From Stackebrandtia nassauensis DSM 44728 (GTDB taxonomy: Bacteria; Actinomycetota; Actinomycetes; Mycobacteriales; Micromonosporaceae): 64,000 nt of DNA. Location: the NCBI RefSeq assembly GCF_000024545.1, contig NC_013947.1, forward strand, positions 4,092,001 to 4,156,000, in the 5' to 3' direction. Every line of letters starts with the position of its first letter. Positions within the stretch are counted from its first letter, which is position 1. Position numbers and translations under genes: made by a program. Below, piece after piece: positions 29,287 to 54,570 of the stretch. The notes beneath the pieces were generated by a model that saw nothing but the letters and a program-made list of their open reading frames with translations, had not been told where the DNA came from and did no database searches.

Positions 29287-29871
29287 GTGCGATTCGCGAT
29301 ACTGGGTCCACTTGAGGTCCACAATGGGGACGAGCGGGCGCGCATCGTCTCGCCGCTGCAACAGCTGCTGCTGGCCGTCCTGATCGCGCGCGGCGGCCAG
29401 CCGGTTCCGGCCGACACCCTCATGGACACACTGTGGGGCGGCAGTCCGCCCGGCGACGCCCGCAAGGCGCTGGGCTGGCACATGCACGCGTTGCGCAAAG
29501 CCTTGGGCGGCAAGGACCACATCGTCCACCACAGTGCCGGTTACGTGCTGCGGTGCGAACCGGGCGACGTGGACGCGACCGTCTTCGAGAACCTGCTGCG
29601 CGAGAACGCCGACCTCGTGGACGACCAGCCCGAGACCGCCAGCCGGAACCTGGCCACGGCACTGGGGCTGTGGCGCGGCCCGGCCTACGCCAACCTCACC
29701 GACCCGCCCGCGCTGCGCGACGAGGCCAACCGGCTGGAGGAACTGCGACTGTCCGCACTGGAGAAGTACGCCGCCGCCGAGCTGAACCTGGGCCACCACA
29801 CCGGGATCGCGGCCGAGCTGGCCGGCTGGTCGCCGAGAACCCGTACCGGGAACGGTTCCGGGAGCAGCTGA
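29287..29871 (+). CDS. AfsR/SARP-type regulator, N-terminal part (frameshifted)
   Basis: The first 95 residues form the OmpR-like winged helix of SARP regulators (RFAILGPLEV, then GWHMHALRKALGG and HHSAGYVLRCEPGDVD); the bacterial transcriptional activation domain begins after that. At about base 29825 the homologous frame changes: here GIAAELAG is followed by WSPRTRTG, while the paralogue pattern (VAENPYRERF) continues in another frame, as if one base were missing. The frame ends at a TGA that overlaps an ATG (TGATG). On its own this 194-residue product would be a SARP DNA-binding domain with a truncated activation domain. A sequencing error is possible. Confidence 0.75.
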   Translation: MRFAILGPLEVHNGDERARIVSPLQQLLLAVLIARGGQPVPADTLMDTLWGGSPPGDARKALGWHMHALRKALGGKDHIVHHSAGYVLRCEPGDVDATVFENLLRENADLVDDQPETASRNLATALGLWRGPAYANLTDPPALRDEANRLEELRLSALEKYAAAELNLGHHTGIAAELAGWSPRTRTGNGSGSS

Positions 29872-32372: not shown

Positions 32373-35318
32373 ATGCAGTTCTCGGTCTTGGGACCGGTGT
32401 CGGTGTCCACGTCGGAGGGACCGGTGACCGTCGAGGCACCGAAACAGCGGCTGCTGCTGGCGCACCTCATCAGCCGGACCAACCACCCGCTGCCGCCCGA
32501 CAGCCTCATCGAGCTGCTGTGGAGCCACAATCCGCCGTCCTCGGCGCGCAAGGCGCTGGCCTGGCACGTCATGCAGCTGCGCAACGTCCTGGGCGGCAAG
32601 GAACGACTGGCCTGGCACGGCAACGGATACGTCCTCAACACCGAACGTGACGAAGTGGACGCCGCCCGCTTCGAGGAACTGCACCGGCAGGCCACCGCCG
32701 TGCGCGACGCCGATCCCCGGCGGGCCGCGCAACTGCTGAACCAGGCGCTGGGCCTGTGGCGCGGCACCGCGTACGGGGAACTGCCCGAGTCGGGTGCGCT
32801 GCTGGAGGAGGCCAACCGGCTCAACGAACTGCGGCTGGTGGCGCTGGAGGCGCGGTGCGACATCGACCTGGAGCTGGGACGGCACGGCGACATCGTGCCC
32901 GAACTGACCGGTCTGGTGGCCGATCACCCGTTCCGGGAGAAGTTCCGGGCCGCGTTGATGCTGGCGCTGTACCGCTGCGGCCGCCAGGCCGACGCCCTGC
33001 GCAGCTACCGGGAGGGCCGGACGCGGTTCGCCGAGGAGCTCGGCCTGGAACCGGGACCGAGTCTGCGACAACTGGAACAGCGCATCCTCAACGCGGACCC
33101 CGGTCTCGACGCGCCGGTCGCCGAGACCGCGACGATCGCGTCGGTGGTCCCGGCGCAGCTGCCCGCCGACCTGCGGTCGTTCACGGGACGGGAGCCGGAG
33201 GTGGCGCGGTTGCTGGACCTGTCCACCGTGGACACCAATCGGCCCGGGGCCATCGTGGTCGGTGCCCTGGACGGGATGGCGGGGATCGGCAAGACGGCGC
33301 TGGCGGTGCATGTCGCGCAGCGGCTGACGGCCAGCTACCCCGGTGGGCAGCTGTTCATCGACCTGCACGGTTTCACCGAGGGCGTCACGCCGGTGACGCC
33401 GGGGCAGGCCCTGGATCGCATGCTGCGGACGCTGGGGGTGGCGTTGCAGCAGATCCCGCCCGACGTCGACGAACGCGCGGCGCTGTACCGCAGCCTGCTG
33501 GCGGACCGGCGGATGCTCATCGTCCTGGACAATGCGGTCAACGAGGCCCAGGTGACGCCGCTGCTGCCGGGGGCTTCGGGGAGCCTGGTGCTGATCACCA
33601 GTCGTCGGCGGCTGGTGGGGCTGGAGGGGGCGCAGTATCTGCAACTGGACGTGCTGTCGCCCGACGAGGCCGTGTCGCTGCTGCTGCGACTGGCCGAGAT
33701 CTCGCAGCCGTCCGACGCGGATCGGGAGCTGGCGGCCGAGATCGTGACGCTGTGCGGGCGGCTGCCGCTGGCGGTCCGGATAGCGGCGGCGAAGCTGCGG
33801 CACCGTCGGCACTGGTCACTGCGGACCGTCCGGGACCGGCTGCTGGATGAACGCGACCGGCTGCACCAGCTGGAACTGGGTGAGCGCAGCGTGTCGGCGG
33901 CGTTCACGATGTCTTATGAGGACATCGATGCCGAGGCGCGGCGAGTCTTCAGGTTGTTGAGCCTGTTCCCCGGTTCCCATTTCGACGTACTGGTCGCGGC
34001 GGCGCTGGCCGATCGCTCCGTCGCGGTGGTCGAGGAGCTGCTGGACGTCCTCATCGAGGCCAATCTGCTGACGGTGCTGGGGCCAGGCCGGTTCGCGTTC
34101 CATGACCTGTTGCGGCGGTTCGCGAACCAGGCCCACGAGGCGGCGGCCGACTACGCGACTGAGACGGCCGAGCTGCACAGCAGGTTGCTCAACTACTACC
34201 GCCACGCCGTCTACTCGGTGGCGACCACCATCGACCCCGGCATGGTGAACCTCGCCGAACCCCCACAGACCGCCTTGGCGCTTCCCGAACTGCCCACCAC
34301 CGAATCGGCTCACGACTGGTACCAGGCCGAGCACCTCAACGTCTTCGCCGTCATCGACCTGGCACCCGACTGGGGGCTGGACGAACAGCTGTGTCAGCTG
34401 GTCAACGCGGTGAGCACCGTGTCGATCATCTTCTCGCACTACCAATGGCAGTACGACATGTGCGAGCGCGGCCTCCAGGCGGCGCGGCGCTGCGGCGACC
34501 GGGACTGCGAGGCCCGGCTGTTGAACCACCAGGCGCTGGCGCTGCGAAAACTCGACCGCGTCCCCGAGGCCGTCGCACTGCACGAACAGTCGCTGCTGCT
34601 GCGGCGGGAACTGGGCGACAGACTTGGCGAGGCCGCGATACTCAACAATCTCGGTCTCATCCACCGGCGAGCCGGTGCCCTCGACAAGGCGATCGCGACC
34701 TACGAACAGGCGCTGCGGCTGGGTGACGACGCGCGCATGATGTCCATACACGCGCTGCTGCGCAGCAATCTGGCCGAGTGCTGGATCCGGCTGGAGCGTT
34801 TCGACGCGGCGCTGGAGCAGGTGCGGCTGGCCGAACCGATCATCACCGAGCTCGGCAGCGAACGCCAGACCGCCCGGCTCCAGCACTACTACGGGTCGGT
34901 GTACTACCACCTCGGCGAGTACGACCGGGCGCTGCGGCACTTCGCCCGGTCTCTCGAATACTGCGAGCGGGTCATGGAACCGTACGGGCATGCCAGTGTC
35001 CTCAACGGCATGGCCAATGTGTACCGGGATCGGGGCGACATTCCCACCGCGGTCGACTTCCATGAGCGTGCCCTGCTGCTGTGCCGTTCGATCAGCGACA
35101 CCGATCTGGAGGCGCTGATCCTGTACGGCCTGGGTCGCACCCACCGCGCGGCCGGTCACCGCGAGCTGGCGTTGAGCAACCTGCGCGCGGCCGTCGCGGC
35201 GGCCACCCAGACCGGGGACGCCTACCAGCTGGAACACGCGAACCGGGAGCTGGCCGACACGCAGGCGGCGGACCATCCGCAGCGGCTGGAATCCAGCGAC
35301 ACCCCGGCCGTCAACTGA
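32373..35318 (+). CDS. AfsR/SARP-type regulator with NB-ARC and TPR domains
   Basis: A 981-residue regulator: winged helix at about 1-95, bacterial transcriptional activation domain at 96-245, NB-ARC ATPase with P-loop GMAGIGKTA near 300 and LIVLDNAVNEAQV and LVLITSRRRL downstream, then TPR repeats at about 690-960. It is an intact paralogue of the split gene just upstream and shows what that gene should look like. SARP/AfsR proteins activate secondary-metabolite or development genes by binding short direct repeats. The ATG at 32373 has GGAGG shortly before it. Targets are unknown; no biosynthetic cluster lies in the window. Confidence 0.92.
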   Translation: MQFSVLGPVSVSTSEGPVTVEAPKQRLLLAHLISRTNHPLPPDSLIELLWSHNPPSSARKALAWHVMQLRNVLGGKERLAWHGNGYVLNTERDEVDAARFEELHRQATAVRDADPRRAAQLLNQALGLWRGTAYGELPESGALLEEANRLNELRLVALEARCDIDLELGRHGDIVPELTGLVADHPFREKFRAALMLALYRCGRQADALRSYREGRTRFAEELGLEPGPSLRQLEQRILNADPGLDAPVAETATIASVVPAQLPADLRSFTGREPEVARLLDLSTVDTNRPGAIVVGALDGMAGIGKTALAVHVAQRLTASYPGGQLFIDLHGFTEGVTPVTPGQALDRMLRTLGVALQQIPPDVDERAALYRSLLADRRMLIVLDNAVNEAQVTPLLPGASGSLVLITSRRRLVGLEGAQYLQLDVLSPDEAVSLLLRLAEISQPSDADRELAAEIVTLCGRLPLAVRIAAAKLRHRRHWSLRTVRDRLLDERDRLHQLELGERSVSAAFTMSYEDIDAEARRVFRLLSLFPGSHFDVLVAAALADRSVAVVEELLDVLIEANLLTVLGPGRFAFHDLLRRFANQAHEAAADYATETAELHSRLLNYYRHAVYSVATTIDPGMVNLAEPPQTALALPELPTTESAHDWYQAEHLNVFAVIDLAPDWGLDEQLCQLVNAVSTVSIIFSHYQWQYDMCERGLQAARRCGDRDCEARLLNHQALALRKLDRVPEAVALHEQSLLLRRELGDRLGEAAILNNLGLIHRRAGALDKAIATYEQALRLGDDARMMSIHALLRSNLAECWIRLERFDAALEQVRLAEPIITELGSERQTARLQHYYGSVYYHLGEYDRALRHFARSLEYCERVMEPYGHASVLNGMANVYRDRGDIPTAVDFHERALLLCRSISDTDLEALILYGLGRTHRAAGHRELALSNLRAAVAAATQTGDAYQLEHANRELADTQAADHPQRLESSDTPAVN

Positions 35319-40332: not shown

Positions 40333-41172
40333 TCAGGCCGGGACGCGGCGTCGAGAACTGTGTTTGCCCACCGGGCAGGTGGTCAACTGGCCGGTGTTGG
40401 CATCGGTGCCGACCAGCACCTCGATGCCATAGGCGGCGCTGAGGTGCTCCGACGTCAGGACCTCGCGCGGTTCGCCGTCGGCCATGACCCGGCCGTCGCG
40501 CAACAGCACCACCCGGTCGGCGATCGCGGCGGCCTGGTTCAGGTCGTGCAGCACCACACCGACGGCGACGTCGTGGTCGTCCGCCAGGTCACGCGCCAAG
40601 TCCAGGATCTCGACCTGATACCGCAGGTCCAGATGGTTCGTCGGCTCGTCCAGCAACAGGATCCCGGTCTCCTGGGCCAGGCACGTCGCCAGCCACACCC
40701 GCTGCCGCTCCCCGCCCGACAACTCGTCCACGGGCCGCTCGGCCATCGCCGCCACCCCGCAGACCTCCATGGCCCACTCCACCTTCGCCGGCCCGTTGAC
40801 GTCGCCATCCCGCCACCGCCCCCGATACGGATGCCGCCCGTACCCCACGACATCCCGCACCCGCACCCCACTGGGCGTCGGACGGCTCTGGGCGAGCAGC
40901 GTCACACGCTTGGCGAACTCCTTCGCGGACAACGCCAACGCCCCGGTACCGTCGGTGAAGTCCACCGAACCGGCATCGGGGCGGTGCAGCCGGGCCAGGC
41001 AACGCAACAGCGTCGACTTCCCACTACCGTTGGGGCCGACCAACGCGGTGACCTCACCCGCGGCCAACGCGATCGCGGCACCCTCCACCACGGTCACCCC
41101 GTGATAACTGAGCCGCAAACCGTCACCGCGCATGCCCTCGGGCACGGTCACCTCATCACTCAACCCACTCAC
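40333..41172 (-). CDS. Ferric-siderophore ABC transporter ATPase
   Basis: A 279-residue FepC-type ATPase: Walker A GPNGSGKST (about 47-55), signature ELSGGERQRVWLA, Walker B GILLLDEPTNHLDL and switch His in GVVLHDLNQA. First gene of the operon; the binding protein begins 40 bases later. The GTG at 41172 begins one base from an iron box, so the message may be leaderless from there; an ATG at 41133 (MRGDGLRLSYHG) is an alternative start. Confidence 0.92.
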   Translation of the reverse strand: MSGLSDEVTVPEGMRGDGLRLSYHGVTVVEGAAIALAAGEVTALVGPNGSGKSTLLRCLARLHRPDAGSVDFTDGTGALALSAKEFAKRVTLLAQSRPTPSGVRVRDVVGYGRHPYRGRWRDGDVNGPAKVEWAMEVCGVAAMAERPVDELSGGERQRVWLATCLAQETGILLLDEPTNHLDLRYQVEILDLARDLADDHDVAVGVVLHDLNQAAAIADRVVLLRDGRVMADGEPREVLTSEHLSAAYGIEVLVGTDANTGQLTTCPVGKHSSRRRVPA

Positions 41173-41191
41173 AAAGGTTAGGCTAACCTAC
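41173..41191. promoter_or_regulatory. IdeR/DtxR iron box upstream of the siderophore uptake operon
   Basis: AAAGGTTAGGCTAACCTAC matches 16 of 19 positions of the consensus TTAGGTTAGSCTAACCTAA and has a perfect 13-bp core GGTTAGGCTAACC. It adjoins the first codon of the ATPase gene, so iron-bound IdeR would block the operon promoter when iron is plentiful. Confidence 0.88.
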
Positions 41192-41263
41192 CTTCCCCGC
41201 ATGTCAAGTCGGGGTGGGTTGATCTCGACGAGAGTCTCCCCACCCACCCCGGCCACACGAAAG

Positions 41264-41304
41264 GGCCCCGGCGACGCGTTCGTGGCGGGAACGTCACCGG
41301 GGCC
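41264..41304 (-). terminator. Terminator of the WXG/YbaB operon
   Basis: A stem pairs 41264-41276 with 41292-41304 (12 of 13 pairs) around a 15-base loop and, on the minus strand, is followed by CTTTCG. It begins 10 bases after the stop of the last operon gene. A second GC-rich dyad at 41211-41250 may add to it. Confidence 0.65.
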
Positions 41305-41313
41305 GGTTCTGAC

Positions 41314-42426
41314 CTATTTGTTTGACAGGTAGGTCAAGTCGATGGTCTGCGCGTTCTTGGTGTCGACCGCCCCATAGGACTGAGCGACCTTCTCCAGCAG
41401 GTTGCCCAGTTGCTGCAACCGCGGTTCGCTGTACATGTACGTCGAGTGGCGCCGGGCCAGCACCGTGTTCAGGTTCGCGTAGAACTCCCCCGAGTCGGCC
41501 AGCAACGTCGAGAACGCCGATTTCGGCAGGTGATTCAGCCACGCTGTGATCAGGAACTGGTCGGCGAGCTTCCAGTACTTGCCGTTGTCGCGTACGGCTT
41601 TGACCATTCCCAGGAACGGACCGTGATCGATCTTGAACTCCGAACCCGAGTATTGCCAGTACTTCTTGGTCTGGTTCTTCGACCAGTCCGGGTTCACCGC
41701 CGTCTTCAGATTGGGCATCGGAACCTGCTGACCGTCGGGCCCCACGGAGTGTCGCGGGTCGTCGTTCGTGACGGTCGGAAGGCCGTCGATGTGCTGAAGG
41801 TCAACGGCCTTGTCGATGAGGTCCTTGACCTTGACATTCGCTGCCTCCTTCGCCCCCCAACCCGCGATGAGCCCCGAGATGACCGAGGAGAGACCACCGA
41901 CCTTGGCTTTGACCTTGGCCTTGGCCGCCTCCTTGGTCCCGGATTCCTCCGACGAGAGATTTCCCATCTCGGCGGAGACCGAGGTGGCCGTTTCCGCCGC
42001 GATCTTGATCAGCTCGATTCTCAGGTTGTCGAGCGCCGACGCGTAGTCCGAAATGGAATCAGCGATAGTGGCGGCGTCCTCTTTCAAGGTCTGCACCGCG
42101 GGCATCAGCTGCTGGTCCTTGTAGTCGAAGAACGACTGCGCACCGCTGCCCTTCCATTCGCTGCGGAAGTTGACTCCGGCGATTCCCTCCTTGAGCCGCG
42201 TCTCGGACTCCTCGATGTTTCCTTTCACGTTCGCCAGGATCATCCGGGCTCCGGCACGCAGCGAGGTCGGATCCCCGAACATGTTCGTCATCTTCTTGAA
42301 GGACTTGTTCGCCGAACCACTGATGGTGCCCAGCAACATCGCTCCAATACCACCGCCATCGGCCTTTCGAGCGGCGTCCATTGTCGTGGAATACGAGTCG
42401 GAGAGTTGCGGGTGAATGTCGTTCAT
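41314..42426 (-). CDS. WXG-motif helical protein, possible type VII-like secreted protein
   Basis: A 370-residue protein of unknown function. Residues about 50-160 form a long helical hairpin with a WXG motif (W91-K-G93, in SEWKGSGAQSFFDY), like WXG100 and LXG proteins exported by type VII systems. Residues 160-205 contain an Ala/Lys-rich helix, and 210-370 a separate domain (GLPTVTNDDPRH, KKYWQYSGSEFKIDHG, ARRHSTYMYSEPRLQQLG) with no family I recognise. GC content looks lower than in neighbouring genes, hinting at acquisition. Last gene of a five-gene operon with two YbaB-like and two other WXG-type genes; no ESX core genes are in the window. Confidence 0.7.
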   Translation of the reverse strand: MNDIHPQLSDSYSTTMDAARKADGGGIGAMLLGTISGSANKSFKKMTNMFGDPTSLRAGARMILANVKGNIEESETRLKEGIAGVNFRSEWKGSGAQSFFDYKDQQLMPAVQTLKEDAATIADSISDYASALDNLRIELIKIAAETATSVSAEMGNLSSEESGTKEAAKAKVKAKVGGLSSVISGLIAGWGAKEAANVKVKDLIDKAVDLQHIDGLPTVTNDDPRHSVGPDGQQVPMPNLKTAVNPDWSKNQTKKYWQYSGSEFKIDHGPFLGMVKAVRDNGKYWKLADQFLITAWLNHLPKSAFSTLLADSGEFYANLNTVLARRHSTYMYSEPRLQQLGNLLEKVAQSYGAVDTKNAQTIDLTYLSNK

Positions 42427-42476
42427 GTCATCTGTCCTGAATTCTGAGAAGACTGTTTCTGGGATGGGATCAAGGT

Positions 42477-42842
42477 TCAGTCGCCGAACACTCGACGCAA
42501 TATCTCGTCGGCTGTCACGGAATGCCGCAACCGGTCACCGACCTTGTCGCCGTCCATTTCCAACCCGTTGAGGAATTTCTCTCTGGCCACGTTCCCGGCG
42601 TTTCGGGCCGAGTTCAAGGTCTGGACCAGTTCTCGACTCAACTGTCGGTGGTCGACATCGTGCGGCACCGCGCGATTGAACTGGATACTGTGGATGTTTC
42701 CCACTGAATCACAGGTCATGCGGACGTGATTTCCCGGCGACGTGACCGTGATCTCGGCGGCGGCGAGTTTCTCCTCGAACTCTCGGATCTTCCGGGAGTT
42801 CTCCGCGATCTCGGCCACTACCGCTTCCTCGGCGCTGGTCAT
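42477..42842 (-). CDS. YbaB/EbfC-like nucleoid-associated protein (copy 1)
   Basis: A 121-residue protein with the YbaB plan: an N-terminal coiled-coil helix (EIAENSRKIREFEEKLAAAE), a short beta sheet (ITVTSPGNHVRMTCDSVGNIHSIQFN) and a C-terminal helix (ELVQTLNSARNAGNVAREKF). YbaB/EbfC dimers bind DNA as tweezers with little specificity. Here a C-terminal tail of 25 residues is added. It overlaps the second YbaB-like gene by 4 bases and lies between WXG-type genes, suggesting a dedicated role in this cassette. Confidence 0.75.
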   Translation of the reverse strand: MTSAEEAVVAEIAENSRKIREFEEKLAAAEITVTSPGNHVRMTCDSVGNIHSIQFNRAVPHDVDHRQLSRELVQTLNSARNAGNVAREKFLNGLEMDGDKVGDRLRHSVTADEILRRVFGD

Positions 42843-43168
42843 GTCTCGCCTCCTTGCTTGAGCACGAAACTCTCGTGGAGCCGCTTCGCCGCCGCGTTGG
42901 CCTCGGTTCTCGCGTTCCGCCAGGCCTCCAGCACCGCGTCCGCCAGATCCTCCCGGCTCAGAGCCGCGTACCGACGTGCGGAGATCTCAACGTCCTTGAC
43001 CTCGCCGGTGGCGAAGCTGGTCACCGTCACAAGCCCGTTGGCGTCACGAGCGGTGACGACGTGCTCGTCGAGCTTCCTCAGATAGGCCCTGTCGGCGGCC
43101 TCGCTTTCCGCGAGTGCCTGATGTGGATCGACTTCCGCCATGGCGTCGTCTTCGATGTTGACCGTCAT
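42839..43168 (-). CDS. YbaB/EbfC-like nucleoid-associated protein (copy 2)
   Basis: A 109-residue YbaB-like protein: N-terminal helix ALAESEAADRAYLRKLDEH, strand pair VTARDANGLVTVTSFATGEVKDVEIS and C-terminal helix REDLADAVLEAWRNARTEANAAAKRL. The strand and helix order matches its neighbour at 42477, but identity is low, so the two could form a heterodimer. It overlaps both adjacent genes by 4 bases (ATGA). Confidence 0.72.
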   Translation of the reverse strand: MTVNIEDDAMAEVDPHQALAESEAADRAYLRKLDEHVVTARDANGLVTVTSFATGEVKDVEISARRYAALSREDLADAVLEAWRNARTEANAAAKRLHESFVLKQGGET

Positions 43169-44832
43169 TGATCGTTCTCTTTCGTCGCCCTCGAGATGAC
43201 GCCGCGTCCCGCGTTCGTTCGCGGTGTCCAGTAACCGTTCAAACGCTCGTCATCGCTTCCCGAATCGTCTCGCGGCATGGAAAGCCGGTCGATCGTCGAC
43301 CGCTCGTCGACCTGAGCGATCTGTGGCGCTTCCATTCCAGCGACGAATCCCGGGTTGTGTTCGACGCCTTTCCAGCTGCCGCCGGTGATCACCGAGGGCA
43401 CGGTGCGCTGTTCGATTCGCCAGTCATAGTCGCCGCCGGTCGGTACGGTCTCCGTTTCGGATTGTTCCTGCCGTTTCCCGGCCTTGGAGCTGTTCGTGCC
43501 AGCCCAGGTCGCCTTCGGTGCCTTGTTGTTGGAGATCACGGATCGGTTCGTCGTACTACCGCCGAAACGCGCTTTGGGAGTCCGCACCGCGCGAACTGTC
43601 CGTTGCGGATTCGCGACGACGCCGTTGTTGCCGATCAGAGATCTTCCCGGCATGGGTCGTGGGACGGGGCTTCCCGAGTTCGTCGGTGACACGTTGGATG
43701 TGCCCGGCACTCCCATGGGACCGGGACGACCGCCGATGACCGGACGGTTTATGCCGTTGCCACCGGAACGAGGTCCAGCGCCGGTGGGCGCCATTCCGGT
43801 CGAGCCCGGACGTGAACCGATCACGGGCTTCACCGTCGACTGTGGCGGTCGGGGACCGCTGGCGGGAGGCTTGCCACCCGGCGTGGTACCGAGTGGGGGT
43901 TTGGTGCCGGGCAGGCCGGTGTTGGGGGGTTTGAGGCCGGGGGTGCCGGTCGGGGGTTTGGCTCCCGGGGGCAGGGGGCCCGGTTTGGGTGGGAGCGGGG
44001 GTTTGGCGCCCGGCGGGAGGGGTGGTTTGGTGCCGCCCGGGGGAAGCGGGGGTTTGGTGCCGGGGGGTGGCAGCGGTCCGGGTGGGAGGACGGGCGGGGG
44101 CGGCGGGGTGCCGGGGGGCGGTGCCGGAACGCCCGGGGGTGGCCCGGCGGGGCCGGGCAGGTGTGGGGACGGGGGCGGGTTCTGAAGTTCGGGGCTGGTG
44201 CCGCCGCCGTTGAAGTGGCCGCCGTTGTCGGGGCGGGGGGACGGGCGGCCGTCGGGTGTGGAGCCGCCGGGGCCGGAACCGCCCGGGGAGGTGCCGTTCG
44301 GGGAGGTGGTGCCGGGGGCGCTGTCGACGGTGGAGGACGCGCCGCTGATGTCGGGCATCGGCTGGTACTCGTCCGGGGGTTTCATCGTTTCGGCCTTGAC
44401 CGCGACGCCCGTGACCGCCGTGTCCATCGCCGCGGTCGCGACCACGTCGTACGGCCACCGGATCGACTCCAGTTCCGCTTCGGTCTTGCCCTTGTTCTCC
44501 GGTTTGTTCTTCTCGGTCTCCCAGTCCTGGTGGGACTTGACGATCGCGTTCTTGTTGTCCTGCACCAGTTGCGCGACGCCCCGCCAGGCGGTGGAGTTCG
44601 TCGCCGCGACGGTGGCGGCCTCGTCGAGTCGCTTGTGGCGCTCCTTCAGCGCCTCCACGTAGGCCCGGCCCGAGTCACTGTCCAGTCCCGACTCGTAGGA
44701 GTCGATCTGGTGCTTGAGGCTCATCGCCTGCAGTTTCAGCGCCCCGGCCATCGAGTTCCACTGGTCGGCCTCGGTGAACAGCGGCTGCGCGTCGTCGTTC
44801 TTGACCATCTCGTAGGCGGTCTTGATGTCCAT
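43165..44832 (-). CDS. WXG/PPE-like protein with long proline-rich region
   Basis: A 555-residue protein. Residues 1-165 are helical with a WXG motif (W83-R-G85) in a hairpin like that of WXG100/PPE proteins. Residues about 190-400 are an extended Pro/Gly-rich region with repeats of the PPLPPGAKPP type. The C-terminal 150 residues (SNNKAPKATWAG, DYDWRIEQRTVPSVITGG, LNGYWTPRTNAGRGVIS) include a short Trp-containing motif near WRIEQ that recurs in actinobacterial WXG-operon proteins, as far as I can judge. Proline-rich tails of this kind occur in ESX-associated Esp proteins. Function unknown; export is inferred, not shown. Confidence 0.72.
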   Translation of the reverse strand: MDIKTAYEMVKNDDAQPLFTEADQWNSMAGALKLQAMSLKHQIDSYESGLDSDSGRAYVEALKERHKRLDEAATVAATNSTAWRGVAQLVQDNKNAIVKSHQDWETEKNKPENKGKTEAELESIRWPYDVVATAAMDTAVTGVAVKAETMKPPDEYQPMPDISGASSTVDSAPGTTSPNGTSPGGSGPGGSTPDGRPSPRPDNGGHFNGGGTSPELQNPPPSPHLPGPAGPPPGVPAPPPGTPPPPPVLPPGPLPPPGTKPPLPPGGTKPPLPPGAKPPLPPKPGPLPPGAKPPTGTPGLKPPNTGLPGTKPPLGTTPGGKPPASGPRPPQSTVKPVIGSRPGSTGMAPTGAGPRSGGNGINRPVIGGRPGPMGVPGTSNVSPTNSGSPVPRPMPGRSLIGNNGVVANPQRTVRAVRTPKARFGGSTTNRSVISNNKAPKATWAGTNSSKAGKRQEQSETETVPTGGDYDWRIEQRTVPSVITGGSWKGVEHNPGFVAGMEAPQIAQVDERSTIDRLSMPRDDSGSDDERLNGYWTPRTNAGRGVISRATKENDQ

Positions 44833-44838
44833 GGCTCG

Positions 44839-45243
44839 TCACTCCGCTCCGGGTCGGGGAGTGGAGTCCTCGGACCGGTTCGGGAGTTTGCCGACCATCT
44901 GGTTCAGCAGGTCGCCGTTGCCGTGGTCCTGGCCCAGCAGGGTGTGTTTGAGGAAGGACGTGTTGCGGCTCATGATCGCCAGGTCGTCGGTGACGGCGGC
45001 CATGAACTTCTCGGCGTCGCGCATCTTCGTGCGGTGCTTCTCGATGGCGGTCTGCAGCGCCGGGAAGTTCGAGGCGGAGTTCCAGCCGGTGGTGCCGTTG
45101 CTCATCGCCTGCCGGATCGGCCCGACCTGGCCGTCGAAGTCGTCGGCGTCCTGGAGGAACCGTCGCGCCAGGTCGTCCATGTTGTCGGGGTCGAGTTGGA
45201 TCCGTTTGCCGGGTCCGGTACTGCTCGCGGAATGGTCGTTCAT
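44839..45243 (-). CDS. WXG100-like small helical protein
   Basis: A 134-residue, mostly helical protein. The first helix (NMDDLARRFLQDADDFDGQVGPIRQAM) is followed by the turn GWNSASNF (W54, a WXS variant of WXG) and a second helix (LQTAIEKHRTKMRDAEKFMAAVTDDLAIM), the WXG100 hairpin. Family members are exported as dimers by type VII systems and lack signal peptides, as here. First gene of the operon, 6 bases before the proline-rich WXG protein, which could be its dimer partner. A GGAGAAG element precedes the ATG. Confidence 0.75.
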   Translation of the reverse strand: MNDHSASSTGPGKRIQLDPDNMDDLARRFLQDADDFDGQVGPIRQAMSNGTTGWNSASNFPALQTAIEKHRTKMRDAEKFMAAVTDDLAIMSRNTSFLKHTLLGQDHGNGDLLNQMVGKLPNRSEDSTPRPGAE

Positions 45244-45317
45244 GTCCGCTTCTCCAATGTCTGTCCACCGCGTCCGCCCGCCGCGGACGCGTTTGAGCCA
45301 AGTGTCGCCAGCCCCAC

Positions 45318-45350
45318 CTAGGCGGCGTCTAGGTTTCGTCTAGGTCTAGG
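45318..45350. promoter_or_regulatory. SARP-type operator: direct CTAGG repeats with 11-bp period
   Basis: CTAGG occurs at 45318, 45329 and 45340, exactly 11 bp apart, plus a fourth copy at 45346; two copies are full TCTAGGT heptamers separated by TTCG. SARP regulators bind heptameric direct repeats with 4-bp spacers (11-bp period) near the -35 position. The site lies between the divergent WXG/YbaB operon and an AfsR-type gene and may control either or both. Confidence 0.65.
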
Positions 45351-45435
45351 CCCGGGTGGACGGACGGTGGAGTCCGATCTCGTCGTTCGAGCCTAGGATT
45401 GCTTGCGGCACAACGGAAAGTGAATGGGAGTTCTC

Positions 45436-48243
45436 ATGCGCTTCGTGGTACTTGGCAACGTCGAGGTCCACGGTGACGACGGGCCGGTGGCCATCGACGC
45501 CCACAAACAGCGGCTGCTGTTGGCCGTGCTCCTCAGCCGCGCCGGTCGCCCGATCCCCTCCGACGCGCTGGTCGAGACGCTGTGGCACGGCAACCCGCCC
45601 TCGGCGGTGCGCAAGGCGCTGAGCTGGCATGTGCTGAAGTTGCGCGAGGCACTGGGTGACCGGGAGCGGGTACGGTTCCGGTCCGGCGGGTATGTGCTGG
45701 CCGCCGAGCCGGACGAGGTGGACGCGCGACGATTCGAGCGGCTGTACCGGGAGGCGCTGGCCGGTGCCGGTTCCGATCCGCGCGCCGCCGCCCGGACGCT
45801 GGCGCGGGCGTCGGAGCTGTGGCGCGGGAACAACGCCTACGGCGATCTGGCCGACGTCGGGGAGCTGCGGGACGAGTCGAACCGGCTCAACGAACTGCGG
45901 CTGGCCATGCTGGACAAACGGTACGAACTGGAACTGGCGCTGGGGCGGCACGACGAGAGCGTCCCGGCGCTGCGGGCGCTGGTGGCCGAGTACCCGTACA
46001 CCGAGGTCTTCCGGGCGCACCTGATGCTCGCGCTGTACCGCGGCGGGCGCCGGGCCGAGGCGCTGCGGGTGTACCGCGAGGCGCGTGAGCTGCTGGTCGG
46101 TGACCTGGGCTTGGAGCCGGGTGAGCGGTTGCGGCGGCTGCACGAGGACATCCGGGCCTCGGCGGCCTCGCTGGATCTGGGCGCCGACGCGACGGCCGTG
46201 GCGGCGGCTCCGATCGCCGAGCTGCCCGCCAACATCTCCACTTTCACCGGACGCGACGGGGAGGTCACCGAGCTGCTGGAGTGGTTGCGGCCCGGCGATC
46301 GCGACTCCCCCGTCACCGCGGTGGTGTCGGGCGGCGGCGGGGTCGGCAAGTCGGCGCTCGCGGTGCGGGTGGCGCACCGGCTGGCCGCGCGGTACCCGGA
46401 CGGGCAGCTGTACCTGAACCTGCACGGCAACACCCCGGACGTGAAGCCGCTGGCGCACGCCGAGGCGCTGTCGCGGGTGCTGCGCTCGCTGTCGGTGGCG
46501 CCGCCGCCGGGTGGGCATGACGTGGACGAGTTGGCCGGGCTGTTCCGCACCGCGACGGCGGGGCAGCGGATGCTGTTCCTGTTCGACGACGCCCGCGACG
46601 CCGCGCAGCTGCGGCCGCTGTTGCCGTCGGGCAAACACTGTGGCGTCATCGTCACCAGTCGCGATCCACTGTACTCACTGGACGATGTCCGGCACCTGGA
46701 GCTGGAACCGTTGGGCCCGGCGGATTCGGCCGCGCTGTTCCGGCGGCTGCTGCCGGGCCGCCGCCTCGCCGACGAACCGGTGGCGGCCGACCGGATCGTG
46801 GAGCTGTGCGCGAGTCTGCCGCTGGCGCTGTGCATCGCGGCGGCCCGGATCAACTCGCGACCCCGCTGGCCGCTGGCGGACTTCGCCGAGCGGCTGGCCG
46901 ACAGCGACCGGCGACTGTCCGAACTGGCCATCGACGACCGGGCGGTACGGGCCAGTTTCGCCACCAGCTACGAGGACCTGGACGCGATGCAGTCACGGCT
47001 GTTCCGGCTGTCGAGCCTGCTGGAGTCGCCGGACTTCACCGTCGAGCTGGCCGCCGCCGCGCTGGACTGGCGCGCCGAGGCGACCGAGGAACTGCTGGAC
47101 GACCTGGTGACCTTCCACCTCGTCGACTCCCCCACCCCGGGCCGCTACCGGATGCACGACCTGATCCGGCTGTACGCGCGCGAACGCGCCGAGACCGACG
47201 AACCGGCCGCCGACCGCGACGCCGCGCTGCGCCGGGTGTTCCTCCGGCTCGCCGCGGCCACCCGCTCGGCGCTGCTGGCGGTGCAGCCGCTGGCCGAATG
47301 GCGCCTGGCCATCGGCCTGGACGAGGACGCGACCGGACCGTCGTTCGCCGATGCCGCCGAGGCCGAGACGTGGATCGACGCCGAGGCCCAGAACCTCATC
47401 GCACTGTCCAAACAGGCTTCCCGGGCACCCGACACCGGCGCGGCGGCGGTCGCGATCGCGGTGCGCACCTTCACCGCCCTCATGCCCCGGGGACACTGGC
47501 GCGAGTCGGTGGCGATCGCCGAGGTGGCCGTCGCGGCGGCCCGCACGGCGGGTGACCCCTATGGACTCGCGGTCGCACTGCGCGACCTGGGCCAGGCCCA
47601 GCGCGCCATGAAGCTGCGGCCCGAGGCGACCACGACCCTCACCGAGGCGCTCAAAGTGTGTCGCGACAACGGCTTCCACGAACGCGTGCCCGGCATCCTG
47701 AACTTCCTGGCCGACGTGCACCGGCAGGAGGGCGAGTACGACACCGCGATCGGCCTGCTCCGCGAAGGACTGGCCGCGTGCGACGAGCATGTCGCCGACG
47801 AACGCATCGCCATCGAGATCAAGAACGGCCTGCTCACTTCCCTGGGCTTCAACTACGAGCAGACCGGCCAGTTCGACCACGCCGCCGAAGCCCATCGGGA
47901 GGCGATCGCCATCAGCCACGGCGACCCGCCCGCCCACGCCATCGCCCTGGGCAACCTCGCCCACGTGCTGCGCCGCCAAGGCGAAGCCACCCAGGCGATC
48001 CCGCTGCTGGAGGAAGCCCTGCAACTGCTGAACGACAGCGGCAACTCCCGCACCTTCGCCGCCGCCCACAAGCACTGGGTACTGGCGGACGCCAGCGACG
48101 ATCTCGCCGACCCCGCGCGGGCTCGCGAGCACTGGAACCTGGCCGCCGAGATCCTCGGCGAACTGAAGCTGATAACCCTGGAGGAGGAAGCCGGAATCCG
48201 CTCCGCACCCCGTCCGGAAATGCCGCAGCCCCTACGGTTCTGA
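45436..48243 (+). CDS. AfsR/SARP-type regulator with NB-ARC and TPR, divergent from the WXG/YbaB operon
   Basis: A 935-residue regulator: winged helix (RFVVLGNVEVHGDDGPVAIDAHKQRLLLAVLL, then SWHVLKLREALGD), activation domain to about 245, NB-ARC ATPase with P-loop GGGGVGKSA near 300 and FLFDDARDAAQL, then TPR-like repeats from about 680 to 920. The start is the ATG at 45436, preceded at 5 bases by GGGAG; an ATG at 45424 is less likely. CTAGG repeats 90-120 bp upstream have SARP-site geometry, so autoregulation and control of the divergent cassette are both plausible. A 7-bp repeat array begins 20 bases after its stop. Confidence 0.92.
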   Translation: MRFVVLGNVEVHGDDGPVAIDAHKQRLLLAVLLSRAGRPIPSDALVETLWHGNPPSAVRKALSWHVLKLREALGDRERVRFRSGGYVLAAEPDEVDARRFERLYREALAGAGSDPRAAARTLARASELWRGNNAYGDLADVGELRDESNRLNELRLAMLDKRYELELALGRHDESVPALRALVAEYPYTEVFRAHLMLALYRGGRRAEALRVYREARELLVGDLGLEPGERLRRLHEDIRASAASLDLGADATAVAAAPIAELPANISTFTGRDGEVTELLEWLRPGDRDSPVTAVVSGGGGVGKSALAVRVAHRLAARYPDGQLYLNLHGNTPDVKPLAHAEALSRVLRSLSVAPPPGGHDVDELAGLFRTATAGQRMLFLFDDARDAAQLRPLLPSGKHCGVIVTSRDPLYSLDDVRHLELEPLGPADSAALFRRLLPGRRLADEPVAADRIVELCASLPLALCIAAARINSRPRWPLADFAERLADSDRRLSELAIDDRAVRASFATSYEDLDAMQSRLFRLSSLLESPDFTVELAAAALDWRAEATEELLDDLVTFHLVDSPTPGRYRMHDLIRLYARERAETDEPAADRDAALRRVFLRLAAATRSALLAVQPLAEWRLAIGLDEDATGPSFADAAEAETWIDAEAQNLIALSKQASRAPDTGAAAVAIAVRTFTALMPRGHWRESVAIAEVAVAAARTAGDPYGLAVALRDLGQAQRAMKLRPEATTTLTEALKVCRDNGFHERVPGILNFLADVHRQEGEYDTAIGLLREGLAACDEHVADERIAIEIKNGLLTSLGFNYEQTGQFDHAAEAHREAIAISHGDPPAHAIALGNLAHVLRRQGEATQAIPLLEEALQLLNDSGNSRTFAAAHKHWVLADASDDLADPARAREHWNLAAEILGELKLITLEEEAGIRSAPRPEMPQPLRF

Positions 48244-48263
48244 CCGGCGGACACCATCTGCCC

Positions 48264-48494
48264 GGTTCGCGGTTCGCGGTTCGCGGGTCGCGGGTCGCGG
48301 GTCGCGGGTCGCGGGTCGCGGGTCGCGGGTCGCGGGTCGCGGGTCGCGGGTCGCGGGTCACGGGTCACGGGTCACGGGTCACGGGTCACGGGTCACGGGT
48401 CACGGGTCACGGCTCACGGCTCACGGCTCACGGCTCACGGCTCACGGCTCACGGCTCACGGCTCACGGCTCACGGCTCACGGCTCACGGCTCAC
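48264..48494. repeat. Pure 7-bp tandem repeat array, 33 units in four ordered variant blocks
   Basis: The array consists of 3 x GGTTCGC, 10 x GGGTCGC, 8 x GGGTCAC and 12 x GGCTCAC with no interruption. Each block differs from the one before by one base (position 3, then 6, then 3). It fills the convergent space between the AfsR-type gene and aroE, and its last units hold the aroE stop codon. Seven is not a multiple of three, so copy-number changes would shift frames; slippage is the expected way such an array grows. Confidence 0.97.
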
Positions 48495-49460
48495 GGCTAG
48501 TCTGGCGCAAGTTCTTCGCCGTCCCGGCCCCGGGCCACCGACCTCCTCCCCACTTTTGACGGTAGTCAGGTTTGGCTTAAGCCAGGCTTGGCCCGGCTGA
48601 GCGAGGCTTAAGAAATTCCAGCGGCGGACAAGTCCGCTGTGGTCGGCGGATAAGTCCGCTGTGGTCGGCGGCAGCGCGGCGCGCATCGCTTCGACCGGAG
48701 CATCGACGCCGGTGAACAGCCGGAACTGAACCACCGCCTGCCACAGCAGCAGCGACAGTCCACTCACGATCCGGCAACCAGCGGCCTGGGCCAAGCGCGC
48801 GAACTCGGTGGGCCACGGGTCGTAGACGACGTCGAACGCCACCGTGTCCGGCTTCCAGTCGATGGCCAGCGCGTCACTCACGCCTTTGGGCATGGTTGAC
48901 ACCACGAGATCGGCGTCCCCGCAACCCTCCGCCGACTCCCACGGGGCGGCCGTCAGTGGCAGGCCGAGCCGCTGGGCCACCGGTTCCAGTTCCGCGACGG
49001 CTTCGGGGCGACGGGCGTAGACGGTGACCGACGTGGCCGACAAGCTCGCGGCCGCCCCCAGCGCGGCGCGGGCCGTGCCGCCCGCGCCCAGGATCGCCAC
49101 CCGGGAGGCGTGTCGCATCCCGACCTCGGCCAGCGCGTCGACCATGCCGGGGGCGTCGGTGTTGTAAGCGACCCGGCCGCCCTCGCCAAACACCAGCGTG
49201 TTGGCCGCGCCCAGCGCGGTAGCGGTGTCGTCGGCGGAGTCGGCAAGCGCGAGCGCGCGTTCCTTCAGCGGCATCGTCACCGACAGTCCGGCCCACTCGG
49301 GCCCCAGCGAGTCCAGGAACGACGCCAGCGTGTCCTTGCCGCACTCGTGCGCGGTGTACGTCCAGTCGCTCAGCCCCGCCGCCGCGTAACCAGCATTGTG
49401 GATCGCCGGTGACAGCGAGTGCGCGATGGGTGAGCCCACCACGGCCGCGCGTCTGGTCAC
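48477..49460 (-). CDS. aroE: Shikimate dehydrogenase with extended C-terminus ending in the repeat array
   Basis: AroE reduces 3-dehydroshikimate to shikimate with NADPH in aromatic amino acid synthesis. Seen: substrate motif GSPIAHSLSPAIHNAGY (residues 9-25), catalytic Lys and Asn in VTMPLKERAL and AANTLVF, Asp in NTDAPG, and Rossmann turn ILGAGGTARAAL near 125. The GTG at 49460 overlaps the mltG stop by 4 bases. The family normally ends near FRLFTGVDAPVEAMRAAL; here about 50 extra residues follow, first over a 22-bp duplication and then into the 7-bp array, whose units supply the TGA. The tail looks like read-through of junk DNA after loss of the original stop. Confidence 0.92.
   Translation of the reverse strand: MTRRAAVVGSPIAHSLSPAIHNAGYAAAGLSDWTYTAHECGKDTLASFLDSLGPEWAGLSVTMPLKERALALADSADDTATALGAANTLVFGEGGRVAYNTDAPGMVDALAEVGMRHASRVAILGAGGTARAALGAAASLSATSVTVYARRPEAVAELEPVAQRLGLPLTAAPWESAEGCGDADLVVSTMPKGVSDALAIDWKPDTVAFDVVYDPWPTEFARLAQAAGCRIVSGLSLLLWQAVVQFRLFTGVDAPVEAMRAALPPTTADLSADHSGLVRRWNFLSLAQPGQAWLKPNLTTVKSGEEVGGPGPGRRRTCARLAVSREP
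48630..48671. repeat. 22-bp-period tandem duplication inside the aroE tail
   Basis: A 20-base block at 48630-48649 recurs exactly at 48652-48671, a period of 22. Each copy includes GTCCGC preceded by a GGACAA or GGATAA variant, forming short GCGGAC/GTCCGC-type dyads. It lies just past the conserved end of AroE and shifts the frame between copies. Confidence 0.85.
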
Positions 49461-54066: not shown

Positions 54067-54570
54067 TTACCCGTTCTTAGAACGCTTACGGCGGGACTTC
54101 TTGTCCTTCAACAGGTTTCGCACTTCGCGCTCGTCGTCGTCGGCGCGGCGCTTGGCCAGCGCCTTGCGCAGCCCGAAGCCGAAGGCGGCCAGTTTCACCA
54201 GCGGTGTGGTGGCCGCGGCCCCGACGAGGCTGGTGATGTTGGCGACGTTGCCGGTGACCTGCTGCGCGTGGCCGGTGATCGTGTCGACCCGTTCCAGCTG
54301 GGTGTTCACCGCGTCCAGCGACGTGTGGGCCTGCGTCAGCGCGGTGTTGACATGATCCATTGTGGTGTTGGCTTTTTGCAGCAGCGGGCCGGTGCGCGCG
54401 TTGAGGTCGTTGACGGCGCGGGTCGCGGCGTTGACGGTCTTGCGCAGACCGAGCAGCACATAGGCCAGCACCAACGCCAGAGCCGCGAAGGCGCCCGCGG
54501 CTATCAGGGCCGCCAGTTCTCCACCGGTGGTCACGAACTCGCTGGCGGCGGCATAGGCCTGACCCGACAT
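54067..54570 (-). CDS. DUF948-family membrane protein
   Basis: A 167-residue protein with one membrane helix (about residues 18-40), then a long coiled-coil-like stretch (TVNAATRAVNDLNARTGPLLQKANTTMDHV onward) typical of DUF948, and a basic tail KDKKSRRKRSKNG. The start is the ATG at 54570, with GAGGGG just upstream; the longer frame is unlikely. Role unknown; the position beside alaS is conserved in actinobacteria. Confidence 0.82.
   Translation of the reverse strand: MSGQAYAAASEFVTTGGELAALIAAGAFAALALVLAYVLLGLRKTVNAATRAVNDLNARTGPLLQKANTTMDHVNTALTQAHTSLDAVNTQLERVDTITGHAQQVTGNVANITSLVGAAATTPLVKLAAFGFGLRKALAKRRADDDEREVRNLLKDKKSRRKRSKNG

What the first reader, a model, noticed from the sequence alone, without database searches (positions are those of the whole stretch)
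41314..45435. Five-gene WXG/YbaB cassette divergent from an AfsR-type regulator, without ESX core genes
Three proteins with WXG-type helical hairpins (W54 WXS variant, W83-R-G85, W91-K-G93), one carrying about 200 residues of Pro/Gly-rich sequence, are encoded with two YbaB/EbfC-like proteins in one operon with 4- to 7-base junctions over most of its length. WXG proteins are known type VII cargo; YbaB proteins are known DNA-binding dimers. Their co-transcription is not a standard ESX locus: no EccB, EccC, EccD or mycosin is in the window. The pairing with a large signal-sensing NB-ARC regulator suggests a regulated secreted or surface system, or a use of the WXG fold inside the cell together with YbaB-like DNA binders. 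GC content looks lower in the 41314-43500 part.
Basis: partly seen in the sequence, partly recalled or inferred. Interest (0 to 1): 0.8.

Follow-up and report, generated by a model that had tools for sequence, protein, structure and literature searches.

The report
Orphan type VII substrate cassette
Five adjacent genes look like cargo of a bacterial export machine (type VII secretion) packed together with two small helper proteins that databases label as DNA-binding, and related genomes suggest that many such 'DNA-binding' proteins are really helpers of secreted proteins.

Summary
The operon is real: E-D-C-B-A, minus strand, 41314-45243, divergent from an AfsR-type SARP regulator. It is best read as an orphan ESX (type VII) substrate cassette made of two separately conserved modules. 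E-D is a WXG/PPE-like pair with a Pro/Gly-rich tail, found at six places in this genome (window included) and at the matching site in a congener. C-B-A is two distinct YbaB-fold proteins plus a protein with an invariant WXG and an invariant YxxxD. In Virgisporangium aurantiacum both modules lie on a contig with EccB, EccE, mycosin and a WXG100 pair, the two YbaB units fused. The window genome has four ESX machines elsewhere. Over 21 genomes, 43 of 102 non-canonical YbaB hits lie within 3 kb of an EspC/WXG100_2 hit (0.6 expected); 0 of 20 canonical ones do. This extends the published proposal that ESX-1 YbaB-like proteins (EspH/EspD/EspL) are substrate chaperones. The AfsR|E region holds three heptamers at 11-bp spacing, like a SARP operator, with similar repeats in two related loci. 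Secretion, chaperone action and regulation are inferred, not shown.

The parts
44839..45243 (-). E: 134 aa, short helical partner (TIGR03930 E 1.9e-4, below cut-off); first gene of the operon; W54-N-S
   Evidence: aligned with 10 family members
43165..44832 (-). D: 555 aa, WXG100_2/PPE-like N-terminal hairpin (WXG turn degenerate, L50-D51-S52), Pro/Gly-rich residues about 151-400, C-terminal tail shared with paralogs
   Evidence: WXG100_2 E 0.0017 and PPE E 0.0032, both below cut-off
42839..43168 (-). C: 109 aa YbaB-fold protein, counterpart of the first YbaB (y1) of related modules
   Evidence: Pfam PF02575 42.0 bits, over cut-off; its only BLAST partners among 11 compared are y1 of L048 and L049, E 7e-9 to 1e-8
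42477..42842 (-). B: 121 aa YbaB-fold protein, counterpart of the second YbaB (y2), with its C-terminal tail
   Evidence: Pfam PF02575 34.0 bits, over cut-off; best BLAST partners are y2 of L049 and L048, E 6.5e-15 and 1.8e-10
41314..42426 (-). A: 370 aa, two helical regions; invariant W91-x-G93 in the first and invariant Y351xxxD355 after the second
45317..45345 (.). Three heptamers at 11-bp spacing (CCTAGGC, TCTAGGT, TCTAGGT), SARP-type operator candidate between E and the regulator
45436..48243 (+). AfsR-type large SARP regulator (BTAD, NB-ARC, TPR), divergent from E (an upstream ATG at 45424 is also possible)
   Evidence: Pfam BTAD E 1e-36; NF053617 AfsR 493 bits, below its equivalog cut-off of 1430
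41258..41304 (-). G+C-rich hairpin followed by T's after A: likely end of the operon (coordinates approximate, read by eye)
   Evidence: sequence printed; no terminator scan was run

Best explanation
An orphan ESX (type VII) substrate cassette under a large SARP regulator. When the AfsR-type protein is activated it binds the 11-bp repeats and turns on E-D-C-B-A. E and D pair as a WXG/PPE-like helical bundle with a disordered Pro-rich tail. C and B form a YbaB-fold heterodimer that acts as a dedicated cytosolic chaperone or adaptor for A, like EspH for EspE in ESX-1. A, which carries both halves of the usual bipartite signal (WXG and YxxxD) in one chain, and E-D are then exported by one of the four ESX machines encoded elsewhere in the genome. 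Shown here: operon layout, fold families, conservation of both modules, ESX synteny in a relative, genome-scale YbaB-substrate adjacency, operator-like repeats. Inferred: pairing, chaperoning, export, direct regulation.
For: V. aurantiacum contig NZ_BOPG01000118.1 holds EccB, EccE, mycosin and a WXG100 pair together with fused YbaB-YbaB plus A and an E-D pair (D-family HMM E 4.9e-22, E-family HMM E 8.7e-8, HMMs built without them). YbaB-YbaB-A recurs in Phytomonospora endophytica, Actinorhabdospora filicis and a second locus of this genome; C matches y1 and B matches y2. In that second locus (L009) the A homolog has a WXG100_2 hit in its first half and an EspC hit just over the cut-off in its second half (23.8 against 23.5 bits). 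E-D stands at six own-genome places, window included, and at the matching site in G066; one (L052) lies next to a mycosin-like protease. Four EccC over cut-off and four EccB in the genome. 43 of 102 non-canonical YbaB hits within 3 kb of EspC/WXG100_2 hits, 0.63 expected; 0 of 20 canonical. WXG and YxxxD invariant in A (4 of 4; 5 of 5). Operator repeats.
Against: A, D and E stay below the curated WXG family cut-offs. The model of A is weak (mean pLDDT 54, pTM 0.51) and finds no PDB match at E <= 0.001. D has lost the WXG turn, and neither D nor E has a YxxxD/E. No ESX core gene is linked in this genome, so the exporting machine is unknown; on the V. aurantiacum contig no EccC or EccD was seen among the proteins tested, and the contig ends inside D. 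G066 keeps E-D and an AfsR without YbaB or A, so the two modules need not work together. 59 of 102 non-canonical YbaB hits have no substrate hit nearby at the threshold used. In the M. tuberculosis work EspL bound EspD and its loss lowered EspE/F/H levels, but binding to those substrates was not detected (PMC6319747, passages read).
Confidence: 0.7

Rival explanations
1. C and B are DNA-binding nucleoid-type regulators that work with or against the AfsR regulator, and the WXG proteins are their intracellular ligands.
For: Pfam names PF02575 a DNA-binding family and the profile matches solved EbfC/YbaB chains such as Rv3716c. Deleting espL lowered whiB6 expression in M. tuberculosis (PMC6319747, passages read).
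Against: The canonical EbfC of this genome sits before a RecR-like gene (L001). C and B belong to the other class, which tracks type VII substrates. Both are acidic, pI 4.8 and 5.7, but so is EbfC (4.2), so charge does not decide.
Confidence: 0.12
2. Two unrelated modules happen to be neighbours: E-D is the SARP-controlled type VII pair, and C-B-A was inserted later and has its own role.
For: G066 has E-D and AfsR at the matching site without C-B-A or the siderophore genes. C-B-A occurs without E-D in three other loci (L009, L048, L049). A and B have low GC (59.8 and 59.6 against 68.9).
Against: 4-bp overlaps join D-C and C-B; V. aurantiacum has both modules on one ESX contig; another own-genome cassette (L051) has AfsR | E-D-YbaB-(109 aa)-(287 aa) in the same order, its last two genes without a relevant Pfam hit.
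Confidence: 0.15
3. A polymorphic-toxin type cassette in which A or D is an antibacterial or surface effector and the small proteins are immunity factors.
For: Several YbaB neighbours in relatives are WXG100_2 domains in open frames of 2000-8442 aa, a size seen in polymorphic toxins (recalled).
Against: A and D match no enzyme family; YbaB proteins are not a known immunity family (recalled).
Confidence: 0.06

Closest known systems
EspH / EspD / EspL of mycobacterial ESX-1 (YbaB-like accessory proteins)
   Same: Small YbaB-fold proteins encoded with type VII substrates; EspH binds EspE and is needed for its secretion, and the authors propose that YbaB-like ESX-1 proteins are dedicated chaperones (PMC6107294, passages read)
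   Different: Here two distinct YbaB proteins form a conserved pair (fused in V. aurantiacum), outside mycobacteria, in an orphan operon away from the ESX loci. No direct sequence comparison with EspH/EspD/EspL was made
EspB / PE-PPE type ESX substrates
   Same: A has WXG and YxxxD in one chain as EspB does (recalled); D has a PPE/WXG-like helical head and a Pro/Gly-rich tail
   Different: No significant structural match was found; D lacks the WXG turn; E and D lack YxxxD
EbfC/YbaB nucleoid-associated protein
   Same: Same fold and Pfam family
   Different: No recR neighbour, low similarity (TIGR00103 19.3 and 24.4 bits against cut-off 49.45), and the class tracks type VII substrate genes
AfsR and large SARP regulators
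   Same: Domain order and 11-bp direct repeats as in SARP promoters (PMC10936776, PMC5930380, passages read)
   Different: Proposed target is a type VII cassette, not an antibiotic cluster

Membership tests
ESX (type VII) substrates, WXG100/PE-PPE superfamily | WXG turn in a helical hairpin | tested here: met
   A only: W91-x-G93 invariant in 5 of 5 homologs, TIGR03930 E 5.3e-7 but below cut-off, best PDB profile hit ESAT-6 E 0.0074. Not met for D (LDS); variant W-N-S in E
ESX (type VII) substrates, WXG100/PE-PPE superfamily | C-terminal YxxxD/E signal after a helix-turn-helix | tested here: met
   A: Y351xxxD355 invariant in 4 of 4 and 5 of 5. D and E have none
ESX (type VII) substrates, WXG100/PE-PPE superfamily | Encoded with ESX core genes | tested here: met
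   Not in this window, but homologs of E, D, YbaB and A lie with EccB, EccE and mycosin in V. aurantiacum
ESX (type VII) substrates, WXG100/PE-PPE superfamily | Secretion dependent on EccC | not testable with these tools
   Needs secretome of eccC mutants
YbaB-like ESX chaperones (EspH/EspL type) | YbaB fold | tested here: met
   Pfam over cut-off for B and C; fused homolog modelled as two helix-three strand-helix units, mean pLDDT 76 but pTM 0.39; Foldseek best YbaB hits E 0.003-0.02, none <= 0.001
YbaB-like ESX chaperones (EspH/EspL type) | Encoded next to a type VII substrate | tested here: met
   A is adjacent; general statistic 43 of 102 against 0.63 expected, in which the window's own two YbaB genes do not count because A scores below the threshold
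YbaB-like ESX chaperones (EspH/EspL type) | Binds or stabilises the substrate | not testable with these tools
   Needs co-purification or a knock-out
EbfC/YbaB nucleoid-associated protein | recR neighbourhood and equivalog score | tested here: not met
   Neighbours within the operon are D and A, not recR; TIGR00103 far below cut-off; the canonical copy is at 6506488 before a RecR-like gene
Complete ESX locus | EccB, EccC, EccD, mycosin present | tested here: not met
   EccC, EccB and mycosin matches all lie elsewhere in the genome; EccD not searched separately
Large SARP (AfsR-like) regulation | 11-bp direct heptamer repeats in the target promoter | tested here: met
   Window, G066 and L051: 7 of 7 match at 11 bp. 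In own-genome loci 2 of 83 intergenic regions have this, both AfsR|E; spacings 9, 10, 12 and 13 give 1 of 83 each. Binding itself untested

The most novel reading that the evidence does not exclude
In the order of this genome, a large share and perhaps most of the YbaB-family paralogs other than the recR-linked EbfC are not DNA-binding proteins but a general class of type VII substrate chaperones, often working as heterodimers of two specialised YbaB subunits. They would be a third chaperone type beside EspG and the Esx/PE partner proteins, and some of them would serve orphan cassettes switched on by SARP regulators.
Probability: 0.45. Interest if true: 0.72.

Novelty: new variant of a known kind. 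Interest (0 to 1): 0.52.

Why it matters
Databases name the YbaB family after DNA binding. If the paralogs next to WXG-type genes are secretion chaperones, that annotation misleads, and type VII cargo could be found genome-wide by its YbaB partner even when its own sequence is too divergent to recognise. It also ties type VII substrate cassettes to SARP regulators, known mainly as antibiotic switches, which gives a direct way to induce them for study in a soil bacterium.

Tried and rejected
Rejected: a complete hidden ESX locus in the window. Rejected: D's W83-R-G85 as the WXG motif. Plasmid carriage: tblastn of A against PLSDB gave no match. Rejected: the siderophore ABC genes downstream as part of the operon; they follow a hairpin and T's and have an iron-box-like sequence of their own (read by eye). 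A weak match of the E-family HMM at window 54067-54570 (E 0.0017) looks like a membrane-anchored coiled protein and was taken as noise.

Led nowhere: genome-contig scan with E (0 confirmed of 69 stretches); Foldseek of the A model (0 of 98 matches at E <= 0.001); Foldseek of the fused YbaB model (0 of 299 at E <= 0.001, though YbaB structures and trypanosomatid mitoribosome chains fill the top of the list). L050's 181-aa protein looks like a double YbaB by BLAST to L055 and L051 (E 2e-11, 4e-8) but has no Pfam hit at E <= 0.1. The G004 locus (L055) has an AfsR gene but no 11-bp repeat (best 5 of 7). L012, L013, L014 and L015 were read less closely: L012 has an EspC-like gene over the cut-off and a WXG100_2-like gene, L014's two neighbours and L015's 288-aa protein had no relevant Pfam hit, and the one L013 neighbour tested is a polysaccharide lyase.

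Limits: gene calls in fetched loci come from my own simple codon-composition finder, so starts are uncertain; in the window it missed C and D and called a spurious ORF over D. The adjacency expectation is a density estimate from hits at E <= 0.001 of three families; genomes are related, so its P value is not to be taken literally. The six E-D loci are all the own-genome places. The organism name Stackebrandtia nassauensis is recalled from the genome size; the four ESX clusters listed for DSM 44728 in PMC4791881 (passage read) agree with it.
Full report
What is there. Five minus-strand genes, called here E (44839-45243), D (43165-44832), C (42839-43168), B (42477-42842) and A (41314-42426), run as one operon: 6 bp between E and D, 4-bp ATGA overlaps at D/C and C/B, 50 bp before A. 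A G+C-rich hairpin with T's follows A, and the siderophore ABC operon beyond it has an iron-box-like sequence of its own (read by eye). An AfsR-type regulator (BTAD, NB-ARC, TPR) is divergent from E. B and C are over Pfam's YbaB cut-off; A, D and E match WXG100, WXG100_2/PPE and WXG100 models only below the cut-offs. GC is 59.8 (A), 59.6 (B) and 64.8 (C) against 68.9 for the window; related genes elsewhere vary (L009's A homolog 73.2, L051's 287-aa protein 62.3), so composition alone does not prove transfer.

Motifs corrected by homologs. In E, W54-N-S is matched as W-x-S by the G066 ortholog; 7 of the 11 aligned members have an (aromatic)-(G/A)-x-D-x-R-N motif in that loop, 3 of them with a tryptophan (read by eye). 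A has an invariant WXG (W91-x-G93) and an invariant C-terminal YxxxD (Y351-D355) in 5 of 5 homologs. In the second own-genome copy (L009) the first half of A scores as WXG100_2 (below cut-off) and the second half as EspC, PF10824, just over the cut-off (23.8 against 23.5 bits), so A looks like a WXG protein and an EspC-like partner in one chain. None of the five has a membrane-spanning or signal-peptide-like hydrophobic stretch (maximum 19-residue Kyte-Doolittle mean 1.12).

Two conserved modules. Module 1, E-D: the D head has a match in 12 of 250 family genomes, this one included, with six places in this genome; E itself is found in 2 of 250, this genome and G066. In G066 the pair sits at the matching chromosomal site (threonine dehydratase on one side, shikimate dehydrogenase on the other, named by eye) with a divergent AfsR gene, but without C, B, A or the siderophore genes. 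E-like genes precede D-like genes at all six own-genome places. Module 2, YbaB-YbaB-A: A matches in 4 of 250 genomes, this one included; in named genomes it was found in Phytomonospora endophytica, Actinorhabdospora filicis and Virgisporangium aurantiacum (3 confirmed of 47 candidate stretches), and there is a second copy in this genome at 5.10 Mb. In each, two YbaB genes, or one fused gene in V. aurantiacum, precede A. By BLAST, C is the partner of the first YbaB and B of the second of L048 and L049; the fused protein's two halves match the same two in the same order (B and C do not themselves match the fused protein at E <= 0.01, and B also matches the first YbaB of L009). So this looks like a specialised heteropair rather than a recent duplication.

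The link to type VII secretion. The V. aurantiacum contig NZ_BOPG01000118.1 (26.8 kb; a 7-kb core of L062 is identical to L047) carries EccB (295 bits, cut-off 154), EccE (110.7, cut-off 108), mycosin (298.8, cut-off 278.75), two WXG100 proteins, the fused YbaB-A pair and an E-D pair. E and D there were found by HMMs built without them (E 8.7e-8 and 4.9e-22 among 372 proteins). No EccC or EccD was seen among the proteins tested, and the contig ends inside D. An AfsR-type gene is on the same contig, not next to the cassette. In the window's own genome EccB and full-length EccC each occur four times, all outside the window, and one E-D locus (L052) lies next to a mycosin-like protease (122.9 bits, below cut-off).

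YbaB and type VII substrates in general. In 21 genomes (this one and 20 relatives; 13 from its family, 8 from other families of the order) there are 122 YbaB hits: 20 canonical (over 90 bits) and 102 others. Of the others 43 lie within 3 kb of an EspC (PF10824) or WXG100_2 (PF25547) hit, 0.63 expected from hit density, in 14 of the 17 genomes that have such YbaB genes; of the canonical ones 0 of 20 do. Without the window's genome it is 40 of 91. The remaining 59 of 102 have no such neighbour at this threshold. In this genome 3 of 11 count (both of L009 and that of L012). The window's two do not, because A scores too low; nor do those of L010 and L011, whose neighbours match EspC only below its cut-off, nor those of L013, L014 and L015. 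Ten tandem YbaB pairs were seen.

Literature. EspH of M. marinum binds EspE and is needed for EspE and EspF secretion; its authors note its YbaB similarity and propose that YbaB-like ESX-1 proteins are dedicated substrate chaperones, perhaps EspL too (PMC6107294, passages read). EspL of M. tuberculosis is YbaB-type, stabilises EspE, EspF and EspH, interacts with EspD and affects whiB6; EspE/F/H were not detected in its pull-downs (PMC6319747, passages read). A review of EbfC/YbaB holds no mention of type VII, paralogs or heterodimers by word search (PMC9610160). Annotation tables show YbaB/EbfC genes near EccD in several mycolicibacterial ESX-1 regions (PMC11206017, passages read). Searches for 'YbaB'+'WXG100'+'type VII secretion' (3 papers), 'EspL'+'YbaB' (3), 'YbaB'+'polymorphic toxin' (0), 'YbaB'+'T7SS' (1, the EspH paper), 'YbaB-like'+'ESX'+'chaperone' (1, the same), 'EbfC'+'WXG' (3), 'AfsR'+'type VII secretion'+'WXG100' (0), 'Stackebrandtia'+'WXG100' (1) and 'SARP'+'type VII secretion' (5, listing only, titles unrelated) showed no report of the general pattern or of SARP control. 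The library holds open papers only, and of these papers only listings or passages were read.

Regulation. SARP targets have direct repeats spaced 11 or 22 bp with the 3' repeat 8 bp from the -10 element (PMC10936776, passage read), as heptamers with 4-bp spacers (PMC5930380, abstract and passages read). The E|AfsR region has CCTAGGC, TCTAGGT, TCTAGGT at 45317, 45328 and 45339. G066 has GCTAGGT-CGCG-GCTAGGT. The own-genome L051 cassette, also divergent from an AfsR gene, has ACCAAAT-CACT-ACCAAAT. Perfect heptamers at 11 bp are reached by 25, 25 and 16 of 2000 shuffles of the three regions. Among 83 own-genome intergenic regions of 80-300 bp only 2 have them, both AfsR|E; but spacings of 9, 10, 12 and 13 bp also give 1 region each, and the window and G066 regions also hold a perfect heptamer at 17 and 26 bp. 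In the window and in G066, reading toward E, a -10-like sequence follows the last repeat by about 8-10 bp (read by eye). Three of the six own E-D loci have a BTAD gene nearby (within 3.5 kb: 0.40 expected, P 0.005; within 5 kb: 0.51 expected, P 0.010, by random placement); 46 distinct BTAD genes exist in the genome (47 matches, two of them pieces of one). Against: the G004 locus has an AfsR gene without repeats; V. aurantiacum's AfsR upstream region has repeats but is not beside the cassette; and the G066 regulator is closer to the window's other AfsR gene (40%) than to the divergent one (34%).

Structure. A (4 sequences) is modelled as all-helical with hairpins at about 53-157 and 268-350, but with mean pLDDT 54 and pTM 0.51, and Foldseek gives nothing at E <= 0.001; the profile's best solved relatives are ESAT-6 chains at E 0.007-0.008. 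The fused V. aurantiacum protein is modelled as two helix-three strands-helix units (pLDDT 76, pTM 0.39); YbaB structures are among the top hits with E 0.003-0.02, and the YbaB profile finds Rv3716c at E 7.8e-8. The relative arrangement of the two units is not established.

Mechanism proposed. The activated SARP turns on the operon; E-D and A are type VII cargo; C-B is a heterodimeric YbaB-fold chaperone or adaptor for A; one of four distant ESX machines exports them. These steps are inference; the anatomy, conservation, ESX synteny and adjacency statistic are shown. What the cargo does outside the cell is unknown; the Pro-rich tail of D suggests a wall-spanning or surface role (inference).

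Novelty. The kind (YbaB-like partner of ESX substrates) is published for mycobacterial ESX-1. New here, as far as the named searches go: the conserved y1-y2-A module outside mycobacteria, its orphan SARP-linked cassette, and the genome-scale association.

Noticed in passing
window 48263-48498: About 33 tandem copies of a 7-bp unit (CGGGTCA/CGGGTCG/CGGCTCA) directly downstream of the AfsR gene, reaching the end of the shikimate dehydrogenase ORF (number of copies from the array length).
   Followed up: no
window about 29569-30002 (G000 4121569-4122002): One BTAD domain is split over two reading frames, which looks like a broken AfsR-type gene.
   Followed up: no
window about 41171-41190: Iron-box-like sequence (TTAGCCTAACCTT, minus strand) before the siderophore ABC operon, so that operon is probably iron-regulated and separate from the cassette (by eye).
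   Followed up: no
G003:C1:1619977, G006:C3:157136, G251:C1:1657640, G009:C3:2565759: WXG100_2 domains in open frames of 3692-8442 aa, three of them within 1.5 kb of a YbaB hit (the G009 one about 6.7 kb from one): possible giant type VII effectors with a YbaB partner.
   Followed up: no
L009, L048, L049: The YbaB-YbaB-A module is followed in three genomes by a conserved 380-386 aa regulator that looks PucR/CdaR-like (name recalled), in place of a SARP.
   Followed up: no
L052 (G000 5832537-5838752): Two E-D pairs in a row, flanked by a mycosin-like protease on one side and two S1-type proteases (named by eye) on the other, away from the four ESX loci.
   Followed up: partly
window 32373-35318: A second AfsR-type gene lies about 10 kb away; it is closer to the G066 locus regulator (40% identity) than the divergent one is (34%), so the regulators at the two sites are not simple orthologs.
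   Followed up: partly
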